DNA of 37,463 nt. Source: a virus. The position numbers and the translations under genes are program-made. The DNA is taken from positions 1-37,463 of IMG/VR virus record IMGVR_UViG_3300037961_006247. One strand, 5' to 3'. Below the pieces are notes generated by a model that was not told where the DNA came from, did not search any database, and saw nothing but the letters and a program-made list of their open reading frames with translations. This document shows positions 1 to 8,153 of the stretch, piece after piece; position 1 is the stretch's first letter, and each line of letters begins with the position of its first letter.

Positions 1-24
1 ATGAATAAAGAAATAAAAGCATGA
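1..24 (+). CDS. 3' end of the upstream gene, possibly the N-terminal half of a split DNA polymerase
   Basis: Frame 1 is open from the window edge and ends at the TGA at 22-24, reading MNKEIKA. The TGA overlaps the next ATG in an ATGA junction. In T4 gp43 the region just before the DTDS motif is an alpha-helical segment reading roughly NEYLN, so this tail could be the end of a separate polymerase N-terminal subunit. That is inference, because only seven codons are visible. It could equally be any upstream gene, or one half of a frameshifted polymerase. Confidence 0.45.
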   Translation: MNKEIKA

Positions 25-953
25 AACATTTAGAAGATACTCCTTGGTGGATTTGTGATCCTGAAGATACTAATTATTGTACTTATAGTGATACTGATTC
101 AATTTATATGCATGCTGAACCTTTATTAAGGTTTAGACATAGCAATTTTGATGAAATGAGTGCTAGTGAAAAGGATGATGCTTTAGAAAGTATAGCAATG
201 GATTATGAAAAACTTGTTACTAATTCTTATGATAAATTAGCTACAGATTGTTTTAATGCTAAGGGTAAACATAGATTAGAAATGAAAACTGAATGTGTTA
301 TTCGTTCAGCTTATTTTAGAGCAACAAGACGTTATGCACAGTGGATTACTAAACAAGAAGGTATTGTAAAAGAATCATTAGATGTTAAAGGGTTAGAATT
401 TAAAAAAGCTAATTTTCCACCTGTATTAGGTAAATTTTTTCATAAAACATTAGTAGATGTTTTAAAGGGAGCTGAACAAAGTGAAATAGATAATAGAGTA
501 AAAGAATTTAAAAAACAAATTCTTGATGGTTCTATTCAATTAACAGAATTAGGTAATCCAACATCTGTAAAAACATTAAATAAATATACTGAGCGTAAAG
601 CTAGAGCTGGTGAAATGTTTACTGTTGTAGCTAAAGGTGCTCCTGCAGCTGTAAGAGCCGTTATTAGATATAATGATTTACTTAGATTTTGGGGTTTAAG
701 TAATAAACATAGTTTAATTACGCAGGGTGATAAAGTTAAATGGATTTATCTAAAACCAAACCCATATCAAATTGATGCCATAGCATTTTTAGATTGGGAT
801 TTACCTGAAAAAATACGTACATTTATAGAACAAAATGCTGATAGGAAAAAAATATTTGAAAGTATTTTATTAAATAAATTAGAAGGATTTTATAATGATT
901 TAGGTTGGACTCTAAATTTAAACCCATATAAAGAAATGTTTTTTAAATTTTAA
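21..953 (+). CDS. 43: DNA polymerase family B, C-terminal part (T4 gp43-like)
   Basis: This encodes the palm (C-terminal half) and thumb of a T4-type replicative DNA polymerase, which copies the phage genome in the cytoplasm. The motif C signature YSDTDSIY sits at residues 22-29; its two aspartates bind the catalytic metals. The last residues, KEMFFKF, resemble the clamp-binding tail of T4 gp43 (SLFDMFDF). At 310 aa it lacks the exonuclease domain, motif A and motif B. An in-frame TAA at 6-8 blocks any upstream extension in this frame, so the ORF truly begins at or near 21. The ATG overlaps the TGA of the frame-1 reading in ATGA. The polymerase is therefore split into two polypeptides or joined by frameshifting. 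The clamp and loader genes follow within 9 kb. The family call is firm; the split arrangement is an inference. Confidence 0.9.
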   Translation: MKHLEDTPWWICDPEDTNYCTYSDTDSIYMHAEPLLRFRHSNFDEMSASEKDDALESIAMDYEKLVTNSYDKLATDCFNAKGKHRLEMKTECVIRSAYFRATRRYAQWITKQEGIVKESLDVKGLEFKKANFPPVLGKFFHKTLVDVLKGAEQSEIDNRVKEFKKQILDGSIQLTELGNPTSVKTLNKYTERKARAGEMFTVVAKGAPAAVRAVIRYNDLLRFWGLSNKHSLITQGDKVKWIYLKPNPYQIDAIAFLDWDLPEKIRTFIEQNADRKKIFESILLNKLEGFYNDLGWTLNLNPYKEMFFKF

Positions 954-954
954 T

Positions 955-1344
955 ATGAGTAAGAAAAAGGACAAACCAGATATGTTTGCTGAAAATAAGG
1001 CTATCATGCCTTATGGAGATAGTGTTGGTGCTCCTTCAATTCATCCTACTAACATATCAGCTTATAAACAAGAAAAAGTAATTAAAACAAATCATTATTT
1101 CGAAGCTCGATTTGATGAAATAAAAGAAGAATATAGAAAATTATTAGAAGCATATAAATGGAATGAATTAGTTTATAATAGTGATTTTAGATTTGAACCT
1201 ATTAAAGGTAAAACTTACCATTTATATCAAAGAGGAGAAGATGAAACATTATTTTTATCATTAATAGGACCAGATGAGTGGAATCAAATTTATATAGGTT
1301 CCTTTAGATTAGATTCTGATGATAAATGGGATAAAATTAACTAA
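955..1344 (+). CDS. DUF2452-like conserved protein
   Basis: A 129-residue soluble protein with no signal peptide or membrane segment. The pattern MPYGDSVGAPSIHP near residues 18-31, followed by a helical region (FDEIKEEYRKLLEAYKWNE) and GKTYHLYQR...LFLSLIGPDEW, matches my memory of DUF2452 proteins, which occur in Bacteroidota and some phages. No catalytic motif is visible and the function is unknown. It starts two bases after the polymerase stop and ends two bases before the carbamoyltransferase gene, so it is probably co-transcribed with both. Confidence 0.65.
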   Translation: MSKKKDKPDMFAENKAIMPYGDSVGAPSIHPTNISAYKQEKVIKTNHYFEARFDEIKEEYRKLLEAYKWNELVYNSDFRFEPIKGKTYHLYQRGEDETLFLSLIGPDEWNQIYIGSFRLDSDDKWDKIN

Positions 1345-1346
1345 AT

Positions 1347-2939
1347 ATGAAAATATTAGGATTAACAGGAGGATTACATAGTGCTGGTTTAGCATATCTT
1401 GAAAATGGAGTACCTATATTTGCTTTTGAAGAAGAAAGATTTAATAGAATAAAGGCTTATAAAGATTTTTATGCTATGAAATTTAGGATGCCTTGGGAAT
1501 GTGGTCAGCATGTATGGTATCATAAAAACTATGATTGGTTAAAATTAGATTATATTACATCTCATTATGATGCTGACGTAGCTGAAAAAATATGGAGAGG
1601 AATAGGTTTAGGACCTTTTCCTAGTGAAAAATATATTAAAATAAATCATCATTTAGGCCATTGTGCTTTAGCTTATTATTGTAGTGGTTTTGAAGAAGAT
1701 ACTTTTGTAGTATCAATTGATGCATCAGGTGAAAAATATTCTTGTAGAATGTATCTTGGTAAAGATGGGAATATGGATGAAATTAATAATATTCCTTTAA
1801 CACATAAATCTTTAGGACATTATTATTCTATGCTTACTGAGTTTTTAGGTTTTAAAAGATTAAAAGATGAAGGTAAAATTGTAGGGTTATCATCTCATGG
1901 GGGTTATAGAAAAGAAGTTTATGATTGTTTTAATAAATGTATTACTATAAATGGTTTAAAAACTGATAAAGATAAAGGTAAAAAATATTTAGGAGGAATA
2001 TATGAAGATTTTTACAGACTTTGGTTTGAAGAATTTGGTAGTAAATTTACACAATTTGATGAAGATATTGCATATAATGGTCAGTTAGTATTTGAAGAAA
2101 AAGTACTTGAATTATTTAATAATTTACATGAAAAGTATCCTAACATTAAAAAAATTGCTTTAGCTGGGGGTATATTTGCTAATGTAAAATTAAATAAAAG
2201 AATTAATGAATTAGATTGGGTTGATGAAGTATTTGTTGCACCACCTATGGGAGATGAAGGGTTACCATTAGGTTCAGCATTAGCAGTTCATAAATTAAAG
2301 AACCCAGACTTTAAACCATTTAGACTAAATGATATATTTTTAGGTACTTCTTACATAGATGTTGTTCATGATAAAGAAAAATTTAATTGTAGACCATATT
2401 CTCCTACACAATTAGCCTTTGATTTAAAAGAAGGTAAAGTAGTAGGATGGTTTCAAGATAGATATGAACATGGTCCTAGAGCACTTTGTAATAGAAGTAT
2501 AATAGCAGATCCTAGTGTACCTGGGACCTATAAAAAAGTAAATGATAGACTGCAAAGAAATGACAATATGCCTTTTGCCCCTGTAGTACTTGATACTCAT
2601 GCAAGTAGTGTATTTAATGTTAAAAAATCAAAATATACTGCTGAATTTATGACTATGTTATATGATACTCATCTAGAATGGCATAATAAAATCCCAGCAG
2701 TAGTACATCCAGTAGATAAAACAGCAAGGATACAAATTGTAACTCCTAACTCAAATGGTAAATTTTATGATTTATTAAGAAAGTTTCATGCAGTAACTCA
2801 AATTCCAGTTTTATTAAATACAAGCTTTAATGTACATGGTGAACCTATAGTTTGTCATCCCAAAGAAGCTTTCGTACATTTGGACAACGAAATAGTAGAT
2901 ATTCTAGTAATTAATGATAAAGTTTATACTAAAAAATGA
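1347..2939 (+). CDS. Carbamoyltransferase, NodU/CmcH/TobZ family
   Basis: These enzymes transfer a carbamoyl group from carbamoyl phosphate, via carbamoyl-adenylate, to a hydroxyl group on a sugar, antibiotic or nucleotide. The 530 aa match full length for the family. The N-terminal Kae1/ASKHA-like domain starts MKILGLTGGLHSAGLAY and contains HHLGH at 101-105, the usual metal-binding histidines. AGGIFANVKLN and the PMGDEGLPLGSAL segment lie near the middle. The C-terminal YrdC-like carbamoyltransferase region contains EHGPRALCNRSI and LLNTSFNVHGEPIV, both highly typical. The gene overlaps the clamp gene by four bases (ATGA-type). Its substrate cannot be read from sequence. Placement inside the replication block, not the glycan block, favours a nucleotide or DNA target, but a glycan target is equally compatible with the family. 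Confidence 0.92.
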   Translation: MKILGLTGGLHSAGLAYLENGVPIFAFEEERFNRIKAYKDFYAMKFRMPWECGQHVWYHKNYDWLKLDYITSHYDADVAEKIWRGIGLGPFPSEKYIKINHHLGHCALAYYCSGFEEDTFVVSIDASGEKYSCRMYLGKDGNMDEINNIPLTHKSLGHYYSMLTEFLGFKRLKDEGKIVGLSSHGGYRKEVYDCFNKCITINGLKTDKDKGKKYLGGIYEDFYRLWFEEFGSKFTQFDEDIAYNGQLVFEEKVLELFNNLHEKYPNIKKIALAGGIFANVKLNKRINELDWVDEVFVAPPMGDEGLPLGSALAVHKLKNPDFKPFRLNDIFLGTSYIDVVHDKEKFNCRPYSPTQLAFDLKEGKVVGWFQDRYEHGPRALCNRSIIADPSVPGTYKKVNDRLQRNDNMPFAPVVLDTHASSVFNVKKSKYTAEFMTMLYDTHLEWHNKIPAVVHPVDKTARIQIVTPNSNGKFYDLLRKFHAVTQIPVLLNTSFNVHGEPIVCHPKEAFVHLDNEIVDILVINDKVYTKK

Positions 2940-3670
2940 TAAATAAATTAACAATACAATCAATTATTAATAAGTATTATCTTGGAGTAAATGAAGCTGT
3001 AAAATGGGTAGTTGAAGATAATGAATTAGGGATTAATTTTATGACCCCTACTAAAGATGTTATTGGATCTGTTTCATGTAAAAATTTCCAATTAGAAAAT
3101 AGTAAATTAGCTATTTATGATACTAAAAAATTATCAAGTCTAATTAACATTTGTAATGGAGATTTACTTTTAGAATTAGAAAAGAATAATGCTATTTACA
3201 CTAAATTAAAAATATCAGATTTAAATTTTAATCTAAATTATGCTTTATCGGATCCTTTATTAATAGGAAAAGTAGGAGAAGTAACAATACCAGATTGGGT
3301 TGTTGAATTAGATTTAACATCTGAAGATATTGATAATATTATTAGAGCAAAAAGTGCTCTATCTCAAATAGATAATATGTTAGTAACTACAACAACAAAT
3401 TTAGATAATGAAGATGTAGTTGAGTTTGTGTTTGGAGATGAATCTGGACATAATAATAAGATAACATATCAAATAAAAGGAGATATTAAAGAAAAAGATA
3501 TTAAATTACCATTTAATTCAGATACATTTAAAACTATTCTTCATGCTAATAAAGATATGGAAGGTGGTAAAATGTATTTAAGTAGTATGGGTTTAATTCA
3601 ATTAGATTTTGAATTAGATGATATTTCTTCAAGATATTTTATGGTAAGGAAGGCAGAAACAGAATTTTAA
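2936..3670 (+). CDS. 45: Sliding clamp DNA polymerase accessory protein (T4 gp45-like)
   Basis: A ring-shaped processivity factor that encircles DNA and tethers the polymerase; in T4 it also activates late transcription. The length of 244 aa is close to T4 gp45 (228). The segment LAIYDTKKLSSLINICNGD parallels gp45 VAIYDLNGFLGILSLVNDD. The end (YFMVRKAETEF) parallels the gp45 C-terminus (YVVALEADSTHDF). The position directly after the polymerase block supports the call. Overall identity is low, so the assignment rests on these two segments, length and context. It is probably the last gene of its transcript, because a promoter-like sequence follows. Confidence 0.8.
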   Translation: MINKLTIQSIINKYYLGVNEAVKWVVEDNELGINFMTPTKDVIGSVSCKNFQLENSKLAIYDTKKLSSLINICNGDLLLELEKNNAIYTKLKISDLNFNLNYALSDPLLIGKVGEVTIPDWVVELDLTSEDIDNIIRAKSALSQIDNMLVTTTTNLDNEDVVEFVFGDESGHNNKITYQIKGDIKEKDIKLPFNSDTFKTILHANKDMEGGKMYLSSMGLIQLDFELDDISSRYFMVRKAETEF

Positions 3671-3693
3671 CATACGTATAAACGAATATTAAA

Positions 3694-3724
3694 TTGACCT
3701 TAGGGCGCACGTTTTATATTTTTA
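3694..3724 (+). promoter_or_regulatory. Candidate promoter, degenerate copy of the TTTGG-N19-TATATTTA family, for hsp20
   Basis: TTG at 3694-3696 is followed after exactly 20 nt by TATTTTTA at 3717-3724. The spacing matches the stronger copies in this window. The base after TTG is A rather than G, and the -7 box has one mismatch to TATATTTA. The site lies in a 93-bp intergenic gap, 40 bp upstream of the hsp20 start. Confidence 0.45.
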
Positions 3725-4201
3725 TTAACCAGATGATCGAAAGACATCACAAAACTAAATGATATGAGTACATTATTTTATGAACACACCCCATTCGATA
3801 TTTTATATCGAAATTTTTTCAAAGCAGACGAAACATTCGCTCCTGCACTTAATTCAAAACAACCACATCCACTAGACATTTATTACGATCAAGAAGGTCT
3901 TTACTTCGAGATTGCATGTACTGGTCTTACAAAAGAAGATATCTCAATTGAGATTGAAGCTGATGTATTAAGGATATCCTATACTAAACCAAAAGATGAA
4001 GAAAAACTTGATCTGTCAGGTTATATTTACCATGGTTTAAGTAGGAAATCATTCAATTTAGGATATAAAATTGCTCCTAAATTTGATTTGACAAAAATAG
4101 ACGCTGAAATGGAAAATGGATTATTGAAAATTTCAATACCATTAACTAAAGAAGCTAAACCGAAAGCAATTAAAATTAAGTAACCTAAAAGCGCCCTTAG
4201 G
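3698..4201. repeat. Short inverted repeat flanking hsp20
   Basis: CCTTAGGGCGC at 3698-3708, upstream of hsp20, is an inverted copy with one mismatch of GCGCCCTTAGG at 4191-4201, downstream of it. Both arms are GC-rich islands in a very AT-rich background. The upstream arm lies inside the proposed promoter spacer and the downstream arm lies in a hairpin. It could be an operator pair, the borders of a small gene cassette, or chance. Confidence 0.45.
3764..4183 (+). CDS. Small heat shock protein, Hsp20/alpha-crystallin family
   Basis: An ATP-independent holdase that binds unfolding proteins in the cytoplasm. The protein has 139 aa, normal for the family. The alpha-crystallin domain runs from about residue 35 to 127 (PHPLDIYYDQEGLYFEIACTG onwards) and ends with the family signature GLLKISIPL at 119-127. 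The extreme C-terminus KAIKIK supplies the I-x-I motif used for oligomer assembly. Hsp20 genes are known in T4-like cyanophages. The gene stands alone between a promoter-like sequence and a hairpin, so it may be expressed separately from the chaperonin genes immediately downstream. Confidence 0.93.
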   Translation: MSTLFYEHTPFDILYRNFFKADETFAPALNSKQPHPLDIYYDQEGLYFEIACTGLTKEDISIEIEADVLRISYTKPKDEEKLDLSGYIYHGLSRKSFNLGYKIAPKFDLTKIDAEMENGLLKISIPLTKEAKPKAIKIK

Positions 4202-4203
4202 TT
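4182..4203 (+). terminator. Hairpin after hsp20, possible terminator
   Basis: AACCTAA (4182-4188) pairs with TTAGGTT (4197-4203) across an eight-base loop AAGCGCCC, giving a seven-base-pair stem. It begins inside the hsp20 stop codon. The following tract GGTTTATATTTTG is only moderately T-rich, so termination is uncertain. The 3' arm overlaps the -33 element of the next promoter. Confidence 0.45.
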
Positions 4204-4232
4204 GGTTTATATTTTGATTTTTCGTATATTAA
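4201..4232 (+). promoter_or_regulatory. Promoter of the TTTGG-N19-TATATTTA family, driving the chaperonin operon
   Basis: GTTGG at 4201-4205 and TATATTAA at 4225-4232 are separated so that exactly 20 nt lie between TTG and TATA. The box is preceded by TTCG, as in four other copies. The first downstream ATG is 4256, leaving about 23 nt after the box. It would transcribe the 102-aa gene, groES and groEL. Confidence 0.75.
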
Positions 4233-4255
4233 CGTTATAAAATAAAAAAAGTTAT

Positions 4256-4564
4256 ATGGCAAAAATTACAGACCCAAAAATGCATCCCTACTTTATAGGA
4301 AAAGACACACACTGTTATACAGTGTATGAAATAGTTACACCCCAAGAAAAATACCTTGCAAAAGGTAGTAAAGGAAAAGATTATGAAAAACCATTAGGAC
4401 ATTATTCTAATTTCGGATCTGCTTTACAAAAAGTAGCTACAGAAAAGCTAAATAATGAAAGAGATCATTATCATAGTATTCAAGAATATGTTGAAAGATG
4501 GGATAAATTGTTGGTTGAATTAAAAGAATTACAAAATTATAGAGGACTAAAAGCAAGTTATTAA
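4256..4564 (+). CDS. Hypothetical protein, first gene of the chaperonin operon
   Basis: A 102-residue soluble protein not recognised as any named family. The first half is probably beta-rich (HCYTVYEIVTPQEKYLAKGSKG...LGHYSNFGSALQKV). The second half is strongly helical and charged (EKLNNERDHYHSIQEYVERW). The layout of a short beta sheet followed by HYSNFGSAL resembles small phage proteins of unknown function. It sits two bases upstream of groES and about 23 nt after a strong promoter, so it is co-expressed with the chaperonins. That position suggests, but does not show, a role linked to folding. Confidence 0.7.
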   Translation: MAKITDPKMHPYFIGKDTHCYTVYEIVTPQEKYLAKGSKGKDYEKPLGHYSNFGSALQKVATEKLNNERDHYHSIQEYVERWDKLLVELKELQNYRGLKASY

Positions 4565-4566
4565 TT

Positions 4567-4857
4567 ATGAAATTAGAAGCATTATTTAACGCCGTAATTG
4601 TAAAACCAATTGAGGCAGAAGAAACTCAACATGGTAATATTATTGTACCAGATATGGGTAATGAAAAAAATCAAACAGGTGAAGTTGTAGCAGTTGGACC
4701 TGGAAAACACACAATCACAGGAGAATTTATTAAAACTATTAGTAGTGTAGGTGATATCGTAGTATTACCAACTCAAGGTTTTACAAAATTACCTTATGAA
4801 GGTGAAGAATATTGGGTAGGACCCGAAAATCAAGTATTAGCTAAAATTAACAAATAA
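4567..4857 (+). CDS. groES: Co-chaperonin GroES
   Basis: The Cpn10 lid that caps the GroEL chamber during ATP-driven folding. The 96 aa compare with 97 for E. coli GroES. The beta-barrel core reads LFNAVIVKPIEAEETQHGNIIVPD, with a mobile-loop region around residues 16-32. GEVVAVGPGK at about 38-47 is the classical GroES signature. VGDIVVLPTQG and the end ENQVLAKINK are also typical. It lies directly before groEL, 10 bp apart, as in bacterial groESL operons. The family call is firm. T4 itself uses a distantly related gp31 instead, so a canonical GroES here differs from T4. Confidence 0.96.
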   Translation: MKLEALFNAVIVKPIEAEETQHGNIIVPDMGNEKNQTGEVVAVGPGKHTITGEFIKTISSVGDIVVLPTQGFTKLPYEGEEYWVGPENQVLAKINK

Positions 4858-4867
4858 AATAAAAGAT

Positions 4868-6496
4868 ATGCCAGTATACAATAATAAAGAAGTTCGTTTT
4901 GGAGCCAAAGCAAGAGCTGAAGTAATGGAAGGTATTAATACACTAGCTGATGCCGTTGTATGTACATTAGGACCTAATGGTAGAAATGTTTTAATTGATG
5001 AAAATGGTTATGATGATAATTATAAGCCAATTCATACTAAAGACGGTGTTACAGTAGCTAAACATATTACAGTTCATGGATTAGTTAAAAATCTTGGGGC
5101 TCAATTAGTAAAACAAGCAGCACTAAAAACTGCAGATAAAGCAGGAGATGGTACAACTACTTCAACATTATTAGCTCGTGAGTTAATTAAAGAAGGTTTA
5201 AATCATCTTAATAATGGAGAAAATGCTGTTGAAATTAAACGTAGTATTGATAGAGCAGTAAAAGAAGTAATTGATATTGTTAGAGATCATATATCTAAAG
5301 AAATCTCATCTGAAGAACAATTACAGCAAATTGCAACAATATCAGCAAACAATGATATTGAAATTGGAAAACTTATATCAATGGCTATTGAAAAAGTAGG
5401 TAGAGATGGAGTTGTTCATATTGAAGAATCAAAATCAGGAGATACTTATTTAGAAACTGTTGAGGGTATGCAATTTGATAGAGGATATGCTTCACATTTC
5501 TTCGTTACAAATAATGCTGATATGAGTTGTACATTAGAGGATCCTTATATTTTAATTGCTAATCATAAATTTACACAAGTAAAAGAATTACTTCCTATTT
5601 TAGAAAGTGTTTCTAATGCTAATAAATCATTATTGATTATTGCTGATGATATTGATGGTGAAGCGTTAGCTACCCTTATTGTAAATAAAGCAAGAGGAAT
5701 TCTTAAAGTAGCAGCAGTTAAAGGTCCAGATTTTGGAGAAAGAAAAAAGTTAATTCTTGAAGATATTGCTGCTTTAACAGGTGGTGAAGTATTTGATAAA
5801 GATAAAGGAATGAAACTTGATAAATTTTCTTATGATTGGTTTGGGCAAGCAAGAACAGTTACAGTTACTAAAGAACAAACTACAATTGTTGATGGTAAAG
5901 GTGATGAAGAAACAATCAACCAGAGAGTAAGTGATCTTCAATCCCAAATTGAAAAAGAAGATACTCCATATGTTATAGAACATTTACAAAGTCGTTTAGC
6001 TAAAATGATTGGTGGGGTTTCTATAGTTCATGTAGGAGGTTATACTGAAGTTGAAATGAAAGAAAAAAAGGATAGAGTTGATGATGCTTTACATGCTACA
6101 AAAGCAGCATTAGATAAAGGTATTGTGCCTGGAGGTGGAGCTGCTTTATTATATGCTTCAAATGGTTTAGACAATGATGAATTAGGATATAGAATTGTTA
6201 AAAAAGCATGTAGAAAACCATTTATCCAAATCTTAACTAACGCAGGATATGATAATACAACAGCTGAAATGATAGCTAATGATCTTTGTAATTCTGGGGA
6301 TGGTTATTGGACAGGTTATAATTTAAAAGAAGGTGTAGTTACTAATATGGAAGAAGCTGGAATTTTAGATCCAACAAAAGTTACAATAACAGCTCTTGAA
6401 AATGCTTCATCTGTAGCAGGAACTATTTTATTAACAGAATGTGTTGTAACTGATCACCCAGATCAAAAGAAACCAGTTCCTGAAGAAACATTTTAA
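4868..6496 (+). CDS. groEL: Chaperonin GroEL
   Basis: The 60-kDa chaperonin subunit that forms the double-ring folding chamber. The 542 aa are full length (E. coli 548). The equatorial ATP-binding motif GDGTTT is at 93-98 with its aspartate at 94. The apical domain is present (about 200-390). The second equatorial segment carries DALHATKAALDKGIVPGGGAALL and KMIGGVSIVHVGG. All three domains appear intact with no frameshift. The usual C-terminal GGM repeat tail is absent; the protein ends CVVTDHPDQKKPVPEETF. It is paired with groES upstream and followed two bases later by a 91-aa gene. Phage GroELs are known from some large phages; an intact groESL pair beside Hsp20 is less usual. Confidence 0.97.
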   Translation: MPVYNNKEVRFGAKARAEVMEGINTLADAVVCTLGPNGRNVLIDENGYDDNYKPIHTKDGVTVAKHITVHGLVKNLGAQLVKQAALKTADKAGDGTTTSTLLARELIKEGLNHLNNGENAVEIKRSIDRAVKEVIDIVRDHISKEISSEEQLQQIATISANNDIEIGKLISMAIEKVGRDGVVHIEESKSGDTYLETVEGMQFDRGYASHFFVTNNADMSCTLEDPYILIANHKFTQVKELLPILESVSNANKSLLIIADDIDGEALATLIVNKARGILKVAAVKGPDFGERKKLILEDIAALTGGEVFDKDKGMKLDKFSYDWFGQARTVTVTKEQTTIVDGKGDEETINQRVSDLQSQIEKEDTPYVIEHLQSRLAKMIGGVSIVHVGGYTEVEMKEKKDRVDDALHATKAALDKGIVPGGGAALLYASNGLDNDELGYRIVKKACRKPFIQILTNAGYDNTTAEMIANDLCNSGDGYWTGYNLKEGVVTNMEEAGILDPTKVTITALENASSVAGTILLTECVVTDHPDQKKPVPEETF

Positions 6497-6498
6497 TT

Positions 6499-6774
6499 AT
6501 GAGTGAGAAAAAAATTGTTGAACATAATGAGTTAATTGCCACAAGAGTACCACCTGGAGACAGGTGGACTCTAGTTGGTGATGTAAAAAAAGAAGTATTT
6601 CCAAATTTAACAGATACTTTAGAAGCATTTTTCCATCAAACCGGTTTTAATGGAGCTTATAGATTAGATCCTATTGCTAGTAAATTATATGCTATACAAA
6701 CATCTAGTGTAGAGGTTAAAAAAGAAGCACCAAAAGTATATGGAATGTATGGTGAATTTAGGCAAGGGGTATAA
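6499..6774 (+). CDS. Hypothetical protein downstream of groEL
   Basis: A 91-residue soluble protein with no recognised family. It starts two bases after groEL, so it is probably in the same transcript. The central segment RVPPGDRWTLVGDVKKEVFPNLTDTLEAFF looks like a small mixed alpha/beta fold. The C-terminal part is basic and ends MYGEFRQGV. A promoter-like sequence begins right after its stop, suggesting it closes the chaperonin operon. The function is unknown. Confidence 0.65.
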   Translation: MSEKKIVEHNELIATRVPPGDRWTLVGDVKKEVFPNLTDTLEAFFHQTGFNGAYRLDPIASKLYAIQTSSVEVKKEAPKVYGMYGEFRQGV

Positions 6775-6775
6775 G

Positions 6776-6806
6776 TTGGTTATTTAAATAAAAGTTATTA
6801 TATTAA
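6776..6806 (+). promoter_or_regulatory. Weak candidate promoter before the clamp-loader gene
   Basis: TTGG at 6776-6779 and TATATTAA at 6799-6806 again have exactly 20 nt between TTG and TATA. It lacks the TTCG extension found at the strong copies. The box ends only four bases before the ATG at 6811, so a transcript from it would be nearly leaderless. The 36-bp gap between genes makes some promoter plausible. AT-richness makes chance matches likely. Confidence 0.35.
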
Positions 6807-6810
6807 GGTT

Positions 6811-7713
6811 ATGGAAAATTCGTTATTAGTAGAAAAATATCGCCCTACAGTATTAGAAAATTATGTGGGTAATGAGCATATTAAAAAAACAATATCACAA
6901 TATTTAGAACAGAATGATATTCAAAATTTAATATTTTATGGACCTGCTGGTACTGGTAAAACAACACTAGCAAAGTTAATAATTAAAAATCTAAATTGTG
7001 ATCACTTATATATTAATGCTTCTGACGAACGTGGTATTGAAACTATTAGGGATAAAGTCTCTGGTTTTGCGTCGGTTGCGTCATTTAAACCCCTTAAAGT
7101 TATTATCTTGGATGAAGCGGATTTTCTCACGATCCAAGCACAAGCATCACTCAGAAACATAATAGAAACATTTTCACGTACTACTAGATTTATTTTAACT
7201 TGCAATTATATAGAACGTATTATTGATCCCTTACAATCTAGATGTCAAGTACTTAAAATTGTACCTCCAACTAAAAAAGATGTTGCTAAACATTTAAATT
7301 GGATTTTACAACAAGAAGTAGTTATGCATGATGTAAAGGATTTAGTACCATTAGTTAATCAATGTTATCCTGATTTACGTAAATGTATTAACACTATACA
7401 ACTATCAATACAAGATAATGCTTTACAATTAGATCAATCAGTATTAGTATCATCTAATTATATGGTAAAAGTATTAAAAGAATTATCTAGTGATAAACCA
7501 AGATTTAATACTATTAGACAAATAATTGCAGATGCAAATGTTCAAGATTTTGAAGAATTATATAGATATCTTTATGATAATGCTCATATATTTGCTCTAG
7601 GTAAAGAAGGAATGGTAGCATATCATATTAATGAATATTCTTATCAATCTAATTTTAGAATTGATAAAGAAATTAACTGTATGGCATTAATAAATCAGTT
7701 AATAAATGTATAA
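6811..7713 (+). CDS. 44: Clamp-loader AAA+ ATPase subunit (T4 gp44-like, RFC small-subunit family)
   Basis: With gp62, this ATPase opens the sliding clamp and loads it at primer-template junctions. The N-terminus LLVEKYRPTVLENYVGNEHI is the RFC/gp44 hallmark and fixes the start. Walker A GPAGTGKT is at 44-51 and Walker B VIILDEAD at 97-104. Sensor 1 is CNYIERII around 131-138, and the arginine-finger SRC motif is at 143-145. The C-terminal helical collar follows. The 300 aa are close to T4 gp44 (319). It overlaps the next small gene by one base. The gp62-like partner lies about 1 kb downstream. Confidence 0.95.
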   Translation: MENSLLVEKYRPTVLENYVGNEHIKKTISQYLEQNDIQNLIFYGPAGTGKTTLAKLIIKNLNCDHLYINASDERGIETIRDKVSGFASVASFKPLKVIILDEADFLTIQAQASLRNIIETFSRTTRFILTCNYIERIIDPLQSRCQVLKIVPPTKKDVAKHLNWILQQEVVMHDVKDLVPLVNQCYPDLRKCINTIQLSIQDNALQLDQSVLVSSNYMVKVLKELSSDKPRFNTIRQIIADANVQDFEELYRYLYDNAHIFALGKEGMVAYHINEYSYQSNFRIDKEINCMALINQLINV

Positions 7714-7901
7714 TGAAGGATTTTATAAAGTTTGCTCTAGTATGGTACAGTCAACAAATGGCTATACCTTTTTGGGTAATAGGTCACGTTCATTTATCAT
7801 TAAATGTATATCAAGACTTACACGAAATAATCGCTAGTGTAGGTTTAAATATTTTAGTAGCGATTGGATTTTTAATAGATTATAAACAACAAAAAAAGTA
7901 A
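7713..7901 (+). CDS. Small membrane protein
   Basis: A 62-residue protein with two hydrophobic stretches, about 12-28 (AIPFWVIGHVHLSL region) and 40-56 (SVGLNILVAIGFLI), and a basic end DYKQQKK. It is probably an inner-membrane protein. It starts at the last base of the gp44-like gene (TAATG overlap) and ends three bases before the next ORF. No family is recognised, and its placement between clamp-loader genes gives no functional clue. Confidence 0.6.
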   Translation: MKDFIKFALVWYSQQMAIPFWVIGHVHLSLNVYQDLHEIIASVGLNILVAIGFLIDYKQQKK

Positions 7902-7904
7902 AAA

Positions 7905-8153
7905 ATGCAACAAAAACAACAAATGAACCTAAATGTAGACATTAAAAATACTACATCAATTGAAACTCCTGACGGTGGAGTAATTTTTCAACAAGGAGTA
8001 TTACTTCGTAATGTTTCTAAATTTGTAGTAGGAGCTGATGAGGATGCTCTTATGCCTATTCCGGTATTCTTTGATCCTACAACAGGTAAAATTTTAGAAT
8101 CAACAATTCCAGTTGAACTAAGAGACCAATATAAAGATCACGTTATAAAATAA
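7905..8153 (+). CDS. Hypothetical small protein
   Basis: An 82-residue soluble protein with a Gln/Asn-rich start (MQQKQQMNLNVDIKN). A beta-rich body follows: SIETPDGGVIFQQGVLLRNVSKFVVG, then PIPVFFDPTTGKILEST. The last phrase resembles a beta hairpin. It is compact, with no cysteines. It may be a small virion or accessory protein. The family is unknown. Confidence 0.6.
   Translation: MQQKQQMNLNVDIKNTTSIETPDGGVIFQQGVLLRNVSKFVVGADEDALMPIPVFFDPTTGKILESTIPVELRDQYKDHVIK

What the first reader, a model, noticed from the sequence alone, without database searches (positions are those of the whole stretch)
1..40. DNA polymerase begins at an ATGA junction just before the DTDS motif
The gp43-like ORF starts only 23 residues before the catalytic DTDS, with an in-frame TAA at 6-8, while frame 1 is open to the overlapping TGA. 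A split between motifs B and C would place catalytic residues on two chains, as known for split polymerases in some Aeromonas T4-like phages, but the exact breakpoint may differ. A -1 frameshift across AATAAAAGCATGA is an alternative.
Basis: partly seen in the sequence, partly recalled or inferred. Interest (0 to 1): 0.75.

Follow-up and report, generated by a model that had tools for sequence, protein, structure and literature searches.

The report
Two-gene phage DNA polymerase, new breakpoint
A large group of uncultured marine phages makes its T4-type DNA-copying enzyme as two separate proteins, cut at a loop just before the last catalytic motif, instead of one; such splits are known from a few phages and archaea, but not at this position or on this scale as far as I could find.

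Summary
In detail: 43A ends at TGA 22-24 and 43B starts at ATG 21-23 (ATGA overlap), 23 residues before DTDS, with in-frame TAA at 6-8. The window starts there because it is a contig fragment. A 99%-identical contig (L001) supplies the upstream gene: 43A, 556 aa, with exonuclease, motif A and motif B, ending NKEIKA*. The split thus lies between motifs B and C (RB69 residue ~611). The Aeromonas phage 44RR split maps elsewhere (RB69 ~512, before motif B). Of 191 distinct relatives, 133 were classed split, 132 with a measurable gap: 47 with ATGA, 7 with TAATG, 73 with >150 bp, usually other genes, between the halves. B lies in all three frames relative to A, which rules out frameshift, read-through and sequencing error. 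Both halves are under purifying selection; four 158-164 kb relatives show no other recognisable polymerase. Close relatives have one-chain versions, one with the future 43B start Met inside the chain; split and fused states are not single clades. Most likely 43A and 43B assemble non-covalently into one replicase, 43B being translated by coupling. Biochemistry is untested. Verdict: new variant of a known kind (split gp43).

The parts
1..24 (+). 3' end of gene 43A (N-terminal polymerase chain: exonuclease, motif A, motif B); last codons M N K E I K A stop; the rest of the gene lies beyond the contig end
   Evidence: Same reading frame continues upstream as a 556-aa ORF in near-identical L001 4334-6004; PF03104 exonuclease and PF00136 residues 23-200 in that chain
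21..24 (+). ATGA overlap: start codon of 43B (21-23) and stop codon of 43A (22-24)
   Evidence: 47 of 132 distinct relatives have the same 4-nt overlap; 8 of 53 neighbouring gene pairs in the window are also ATGA overlaps
21..953 (+). gene 43B, 310 aa: C-terminal polymerase chain with motif C (YSDTDS), RRY motif, thumb, and a C-terminal tail (NPYKEMFFKF) at the place of the gp45-binding tail of gp43
   Evidence: phrog_262 E 1.3e-49 over profile 565-850 of 856; phmmer to RB69 gp43 608-884; Foldseek of the predicted model to T4/RB69 gp43, best E 7.1e-8
2936..3670 (+). sliding clamp (gp45-like), expected partner of the assembled polymerase
   Evidence: phrog_223 DNA polymerase processivity factor, E 6.8e-8
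955..1344 (+). DUF2452 gene; not part of the enzyme, but in relatives a homologue sits between 43A and 43B
   Evidence: PF10504 E 7e-12; homologue between the halves in L036 and others

Best explanation
The phage encodes a T4-type family B replicase (gp43) as two separate polypeptides. 43A carries the 3'-5' exonuclease, the motif A aspartate and the fingers with motif B; 43B carries the motif C aspartates, the thumb and the clamp-binding tail. The break lies in a surface loop between the palm helix and the motif C hairpin. Ribosomes that end 43A restart on the overlapping ATG of 43B (termination-reinitiation, without a Shine-Dalgarno site, like other genes here). The two chains then fold together without a peptide bond, so that the active site is completed at the interface. 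Shown: gene structure, position, conservation, selection, distribution. Inferred: co-assembly, activity and the coupling mechanism.
For: 43A is found upstream in near-identical contigs and has exonuclease, DLTSLYPS and KILLNSLYG, while 43B has DTDS. In 132 distinct split loci with a measurable gap, 43A precedes 43B on the same strand; A ends at the same profile position and B starts 23 residues before DTDS in 126. B lies in all three frames relative to A (84/25/23), and 73 loci have >150 bp, up to 2687 bp, between them, mostly ordinary genes. dN is well below dS for both halves, e.g. B dN 0.067 vs dS 0.585, A 0.043 vs 0.600 for L034. In four 158-164 kb relatives the only recognisable polymerase matches are the two PolB halves; no PolA or PolIII-alpha match. 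In a fused relative (L343) the homologous place is predicted as a low-confidence loop (530-542) between helix 491-520 and the motif C hairpin, and the whole model aligns to RB69 gp43 with Z 31. 43B alone is poorly predicted at 90-125, the palm region that would pack on chain A. Precedent: the split 43A/43B of Aeromonas phage 25 co-purify and have polymerase activity (PMC2988022, citing Petrov 2010).
Against: No biochemical or proteomic evidence for this clade. No complex model was computed. The low confidence in 43B alone could have other causes. Completeness of the large relatives is not given, so absence of another polymerase is only as good as those records. Reinitiation is inferred from overlap alone, and many relatives do not have it.
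Confidence: 0.88

Rival explanations
1. Programmed -1 ribosomal frameshift at AATAAAAGCATGA yields one full-length polymerase.
For: The B frame is -1 to the A frame in the window and A-rich sequence precedes the junction. An in-frame continuation from A would be short.
Against: In 25 and 23 of 132 loci B is in the other two frames, and in 73 the halves are >150 bp apart. Canonical slippery heptamers occur in 3 of 47 ATGA loci. Junction sequences vary (GCATGA, TTATGA, CTATGA). B has a conserved N-terminal head starting at its own Met.
Confidence: 0.02
2. Sequencing or assembly error breaks one continuous gene.
For: Such errors are common in metagenome contigs at A-runs; L175 looks like one.
Against: 133 distinct loci from many samples share the split at the same place, including 158-164 kb contigs, and other genes lie between the halves in many.
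Confidence: 0.01
3. The halves are joined after translation by a split intein, as in Nanoarchaeum PolB or phage MIJ3 PolB.
For: Split PolB inteins exist (PMC4104785, PMC6892783, PMC10189870), and a 484-kb phage split at the same place carries inteins in motifs B and C.
Against: In the window clade the chain ends are too short for intein parts: about 22 residues from the GQ of the palm helix to the end of A, and 23 residues from the start of B to DTDS. No HN-S/T/C splice junction stands before DTDS.
Confidence: 0.02
4. The split polymerase is a decaying gene and another enzyme replicates the genome.
For: Weak PolA-like matches (421-429 aa frames, below the cut-off) in three of eight large relatives.
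Against: Purifying selection on both halves, invariant catalytic residues in 51 43B sequences, and no PolA or PolIII match in the four 158-164 kb records nearest the window.
Confidence: 0.05

Closest known systems
Split gp43A/gp43B of Aeromonas T4-like phages 44RR, 25 (Petrov, Ratnayaka and Karam 2010, as cited in PMC2988022)
   Same: T4-type PolB in two adjacent genes, 43A with exonuclease and motif A, 43B with motif C and thumb; in both, sequence elements sit between the halves in some phages (a GIY-YIG-type seg gene in phage 25; GIY-YIG genes in L069, L223, L335 here).
   Different: 44RR breaks at RB69 ~512, in the fingers before motif B, so motif B is on 43B; here the break is at ~611, after motif B. 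Amino-acid identity to any phage record is under 60%. The clade here is large, marine and uncultured, and mostly has overlapping or spaced halves rather than an untranslated spacer or intron.
Split archaeal PolB of Methanobacteriales and Nanoarchaeum equitans (PMC4104785)
   Same: Family B polymerase made from two polypeptides.
   Different: Thought to come from intein loss or to be trans-spliced by a split intein; no intein traces here. The exact archaeal breakpoint was not compared here.
484-kb uncultured phage LR756508
   Same: Polymerase broken at the homologous place, between motifs B and C, with about 3 kb of other genes between the halves.
   Different: Carries inteins in motif B and motif C; groups with fused enzymes (Mel-JY01 side) in the tree, with low support, so probably an independent split.
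One-chain gp43 of RB69, S-PM2, Pelagibacter phage Mosig, Microcystis phage Mel-JY01
   Same: Same domain order and motifs.
   Different: One continuous chain; the linker from the palm helix to motif C is about 14-16 residues shorter.

Membership tests
T4-type family B DNA polymerase (gp43) | PolB exonuclease plus polymerase domains with motifs A, B, C | tested here: met
   43A: PF03104, PF00136, DLTSLYPS, NSLYG; 43B: phrog_262 565-850, DTDS. All present when the two chains are taken together; 43A is known from L001, not from the window itself.
T4-type family B DNA polymerase (gp43) | Fold of gp43 | tested here: met
   43B model hits T4/RB69 gp43; fused relative L343 aligns over 733-744 residues to RB69 gp43, Z 31. 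No model of 43A itself was made.
T4-like phage (gp23 capsid lineage) | Gp23 major capsid protein in the genome | tested here: met
   PF07068 at E 1e-73 to 1e-77 in the five 155-164 kb relatives; not in the 37-kb window fragment itself
Split gp43A/gp43B of the Aeromonas phage type | Break in the fingers before motif B (RB69 ~512) | tested here: not met
   Break at RB69 ~611 after motif B
Split gp43A/gp43B of the Aeromonas phage type | The two chains co-purify and polymerise DNA | not testable with these tools
   Needs expression; known for phage 25 (PMC2988022)
Trans-spliced split-intein PolB | IntN at the end of chain A and IntC at the start of chain B | tested here: not met
   Chain ends too short and without splice-junction residues
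Programmed frameshift gene | Fixed frame relation and slippery site kept in relatives | tested here: not met
   All three frames, spaced halves, heptamer in 3 of 47

The most novel reading that the evidence does not exclude
Within one lineage of marine T4-like phages the replicase has switched more than once between one chain and two chains at a single permissive loop, with a start codon that already existed inside the fused chain (as in L343) serving as the start of the second subunit. The two-chain form has been stable long enough for unrelated genes to move in between.
Probability: 0.6. Interest if true: 0.6.

Novelty: new variant of a known kind. Interest (0 to 1): 0.5.

Why it matters
It shows that a replicative polymerase tolerates being cut right beside its catalytic aspartates, stably, across a large phage group. 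It gives a second natural breakpoint for gp43 and natural fused and split relatives to compare. It allows direct tests of how split enzymes arise and of whether two-chain replicases gain anything. It also warns annotators: 43B alone scores below the Pfam PF00136 cut-off, so the polymerase of such phages can look truncated or absent.

Tried and rejected
Nucleotide search of annotated phages with window 1-8000: no match. PF00136 on the window: no match, because 43B alone is below the cut-off. Frameshift, sequencing error and intein: rejected as above. Group I introns or other known RNA elements near the junctions of eight sources: none at the Rfam gathering score. Idea that the ~88-aa gene found between the halves in 56 loci is a third subunit: not favoured, since the 158-164 kb relatives carry it several kb upstream of 43A instead. 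Search for close relatives of fused L343: only itself. Paper searches for gp43A/gp43B found none, and searches for split PolB found no report of this clade or breakpoint; the library lacks most subscription papers. OM43 phage 'split DNA polymerases' (PMC10580990) were seen only as a mention and not compared.

Full report
What was checked. The window is a complete 37,463-base virus record that starts inside a gene. The stated features are all there: frame 1 reads MNKEIKA and stops at TGA 22-24, the frame of DTDS has TAA at 6-8 and ATG at 21-23, and DTDS follows 23 residues later. The 310-aa ORF is the C-terminal part of a T4-type DNA polymerase (phrog_262, E 1.3e-49, profile positions 565-850 of 856; RB69 gp43 residues 608-884).

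The missing half. A scan of viral contigs found L001, a contig that overlaps the window at 99.0% identity over 3062 bp; the same contig sits in a Flavobacteriales MAG as NZWA01000061.1. Directly upstream it carries a 556-aa ORF that ends ...NRVMNKEIKA* and overlaps the next ATG by ATGA. That chain has the PolB exonuclease and the first part of the PolB domain, with DLTSLYPS (motif A) and KILLNSLYG (motif B). L002 (95% identical in 43B) has the same arrangement.

Where the break lies. In an alignment with RB69, S-PM2, Mosig, Mel-JY01 and 44RR, the break falls at RB69 residue ~611, after motif B (N564) and before motif C (D621). The Aeromonas 44RR break falls at RB69 ~512, before motif B. Two PHROG families, phrog_2062 (502 aa, matched to our A residue 487) and phrog_1918 (382 aa, which covers motif B onward), fit that different, earlier break. 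Compared with RB69 and Mel-JY01 the joint of the two chains holds about 14 extra residues.

How general it is. Scans with five queries gave 191 distinct polymerase loci: 133 split, 47 fused, 11 with only the C-terminal part in reach; the split class includes L175, which is probably a sequencing error. In 132 split loci with a measurable gap, 47 overlap by 4 nt, 7 by 1 nt, 5 are within 50 bp, and 73 have more than 150 bp and up to 2687 bp between the halves. The frame of B relative to A takes all three values (84, 25, 23). The start Met lies 23 residues before DTDS in 126 of 132. The intervening genes are mostly ordinary (cupin, cytidylyltransferase, PLP enzyme, Smr, DUF2452, DUF6165, an unknown ~88-aa gene); three loci have GIY-YIG-type genes: SegE-like in L069 and T5orf172-type in L223, and, by eye, a similar gene in L335. 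These facts exclude frameshift, read-through, and sequencing error as general explanations. An intron is not possible where the genes overlap, and no Rfam match was found near eight junctions.

Selection and function. dN is far below dS in both halves between L001/window and relatives. Motif C, the RRY motif and many thumb residues are invariant among 51 43B chains. In four relatives of 158-164 kb the only matches to polymerase families tested are the two PolB halves; no PolA or PolIII-alpha. Three other, partly shorter records have weak PolA-like matches under the cut-off. The five records of 155-164 kb have a Gp23 capsid gene, so the lineage is T4-like.

Structure. The fused relative L343 was predicted with mean pLDDT 80 and aligns to RB69 gp43 over about 740 residues (Z 31). 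Its linker, residues 530-542, is predicted with low confidence and lies between the long palm helix and the motif C hairpin. The break is therefore in a loop. The 43B chain alone was predicted with mean pLDDT 73 and poor confidence at residues 90-125, palm strands that in the whole enzyme pack near motif A; this agrees with, but does not prove, a need for chain A. No model of the complex was made.

How it arose. In a 44-row tree L343, a fused enzyme, branches outside 33 others (support 87/90, not strong, and L343 is a long branch; T-part tree disagrees). Its linker reads ...NREIGNKEMTIQ-MKNLEDVPEYIC...DTDS, with an in-frame Met exactly 23 residues before DTDS, like the 43B start. Inside the 33, two groups are fused again (L157/L221 and the L297 group), with a different but mutually similar linker. 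Holding all split rows as one clade is rejected (p-AU 1.5e-13); holding the seven nested fused rows as one clade is only weakly rejected (0.035). So the state changed more than once; the direction and the part played by recombination are open.

Translation. None of 54 genes in the window has an SD-like tetramer upstream (random expectation 4.5), and start sites are A/T-rich; 8 of 53 neighbouring pairs have ATGA and 4 have TAATG. With MAG bins named Flavobacteriales and Flavobacteriaceae among the five genome hits, a Bacteroidota host is likely but not shown. Termination-reinitiation without an SD site is thus the normal pattern of this genome, not a special device of the polymerase.

Known precedents. 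PMC2988022 reports that 43A and 43B of Aeromonas phage 25 co-purify and have polymerase activity. PMC4104785 discusses split archaeal PolB. PMC6892783 and PMC10189870 describe PolB split inteins. None of the searches of the held papers showed this clade or breakpoint, but the library is incomplete. The overall rating is a new variant of a known kind.

Noticed in passing
L083 864-8788 (LR756508, 484-kb uncultured phage): Its PolB is broken at the homologous place with about 3 kb of other genes between, and looks to hold two inteins, one in motif B (KILIN/CFTPGHE...) and one in motif C (YTD/SCPGF...HN/TDS).
   Followed up: partly
L343 2315-4870: One-chain polymerase with the 43B-like head (MKNLEDVPEYIC) inside the chain, in the same gene neighbourhood (FolE, clamp, Hsp20, GroES, GroEL).
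   Followed up: yes
L069 204-641; L223 168-638; L335 3457-3936: GIY-YIG-type genes sit between 43A and 43B, similar to the seg gene between 43A and 43B in Aeromonas phage 25. Pfam was run on L069 and L223 only; L335 was judged by similarity.
   Followed up: partly
L264 5601-5885 and homologues: A conserved ~88-aa gene of unknown function lies between the halves in 56 split loci, and several kb upstream of 43A in the 158-164 kb relatives.
   Followed up: partly
L354, L355, L356: Weak PolA-like matches in 421-429 aa frames in three large relatives, below the family cut-off; possibly a divergent PolA.
   Followed up: no
L363 (G001:C1:150626-152065): The Gp23 capsid match of the 158-kb relative reads across one in-frame TAA; error, split gene or recoding not examined.
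   Followed up: no
window 1-37463: 0 of 54 genes have an SD-like tetramer before the start (4.5 expected at random places); all genes on one strand, A/T-rich start regions, G+C 28.6%.
   Followed up: partly
window 1347-2939, 3764-4183, 4567-6496: Carbamoyltransferase (NodU-like), a small heat-shock-type protein, GroES-like and GroEL-like genes stand beside the polymerase and clamp genes. The carbamoyltransferase was tested by Pfam; the chaperones were named from sequence only.
   Followed up: no
L065 4220-6001 and L077: 43A carries a C-terminal extension of about 30 residues in these relatives.
   Followed up: no
L175 202-2647: Polymerase frame breaks just after DTDS with overlapping frames, probably a sequencing error.
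   Followed up: no
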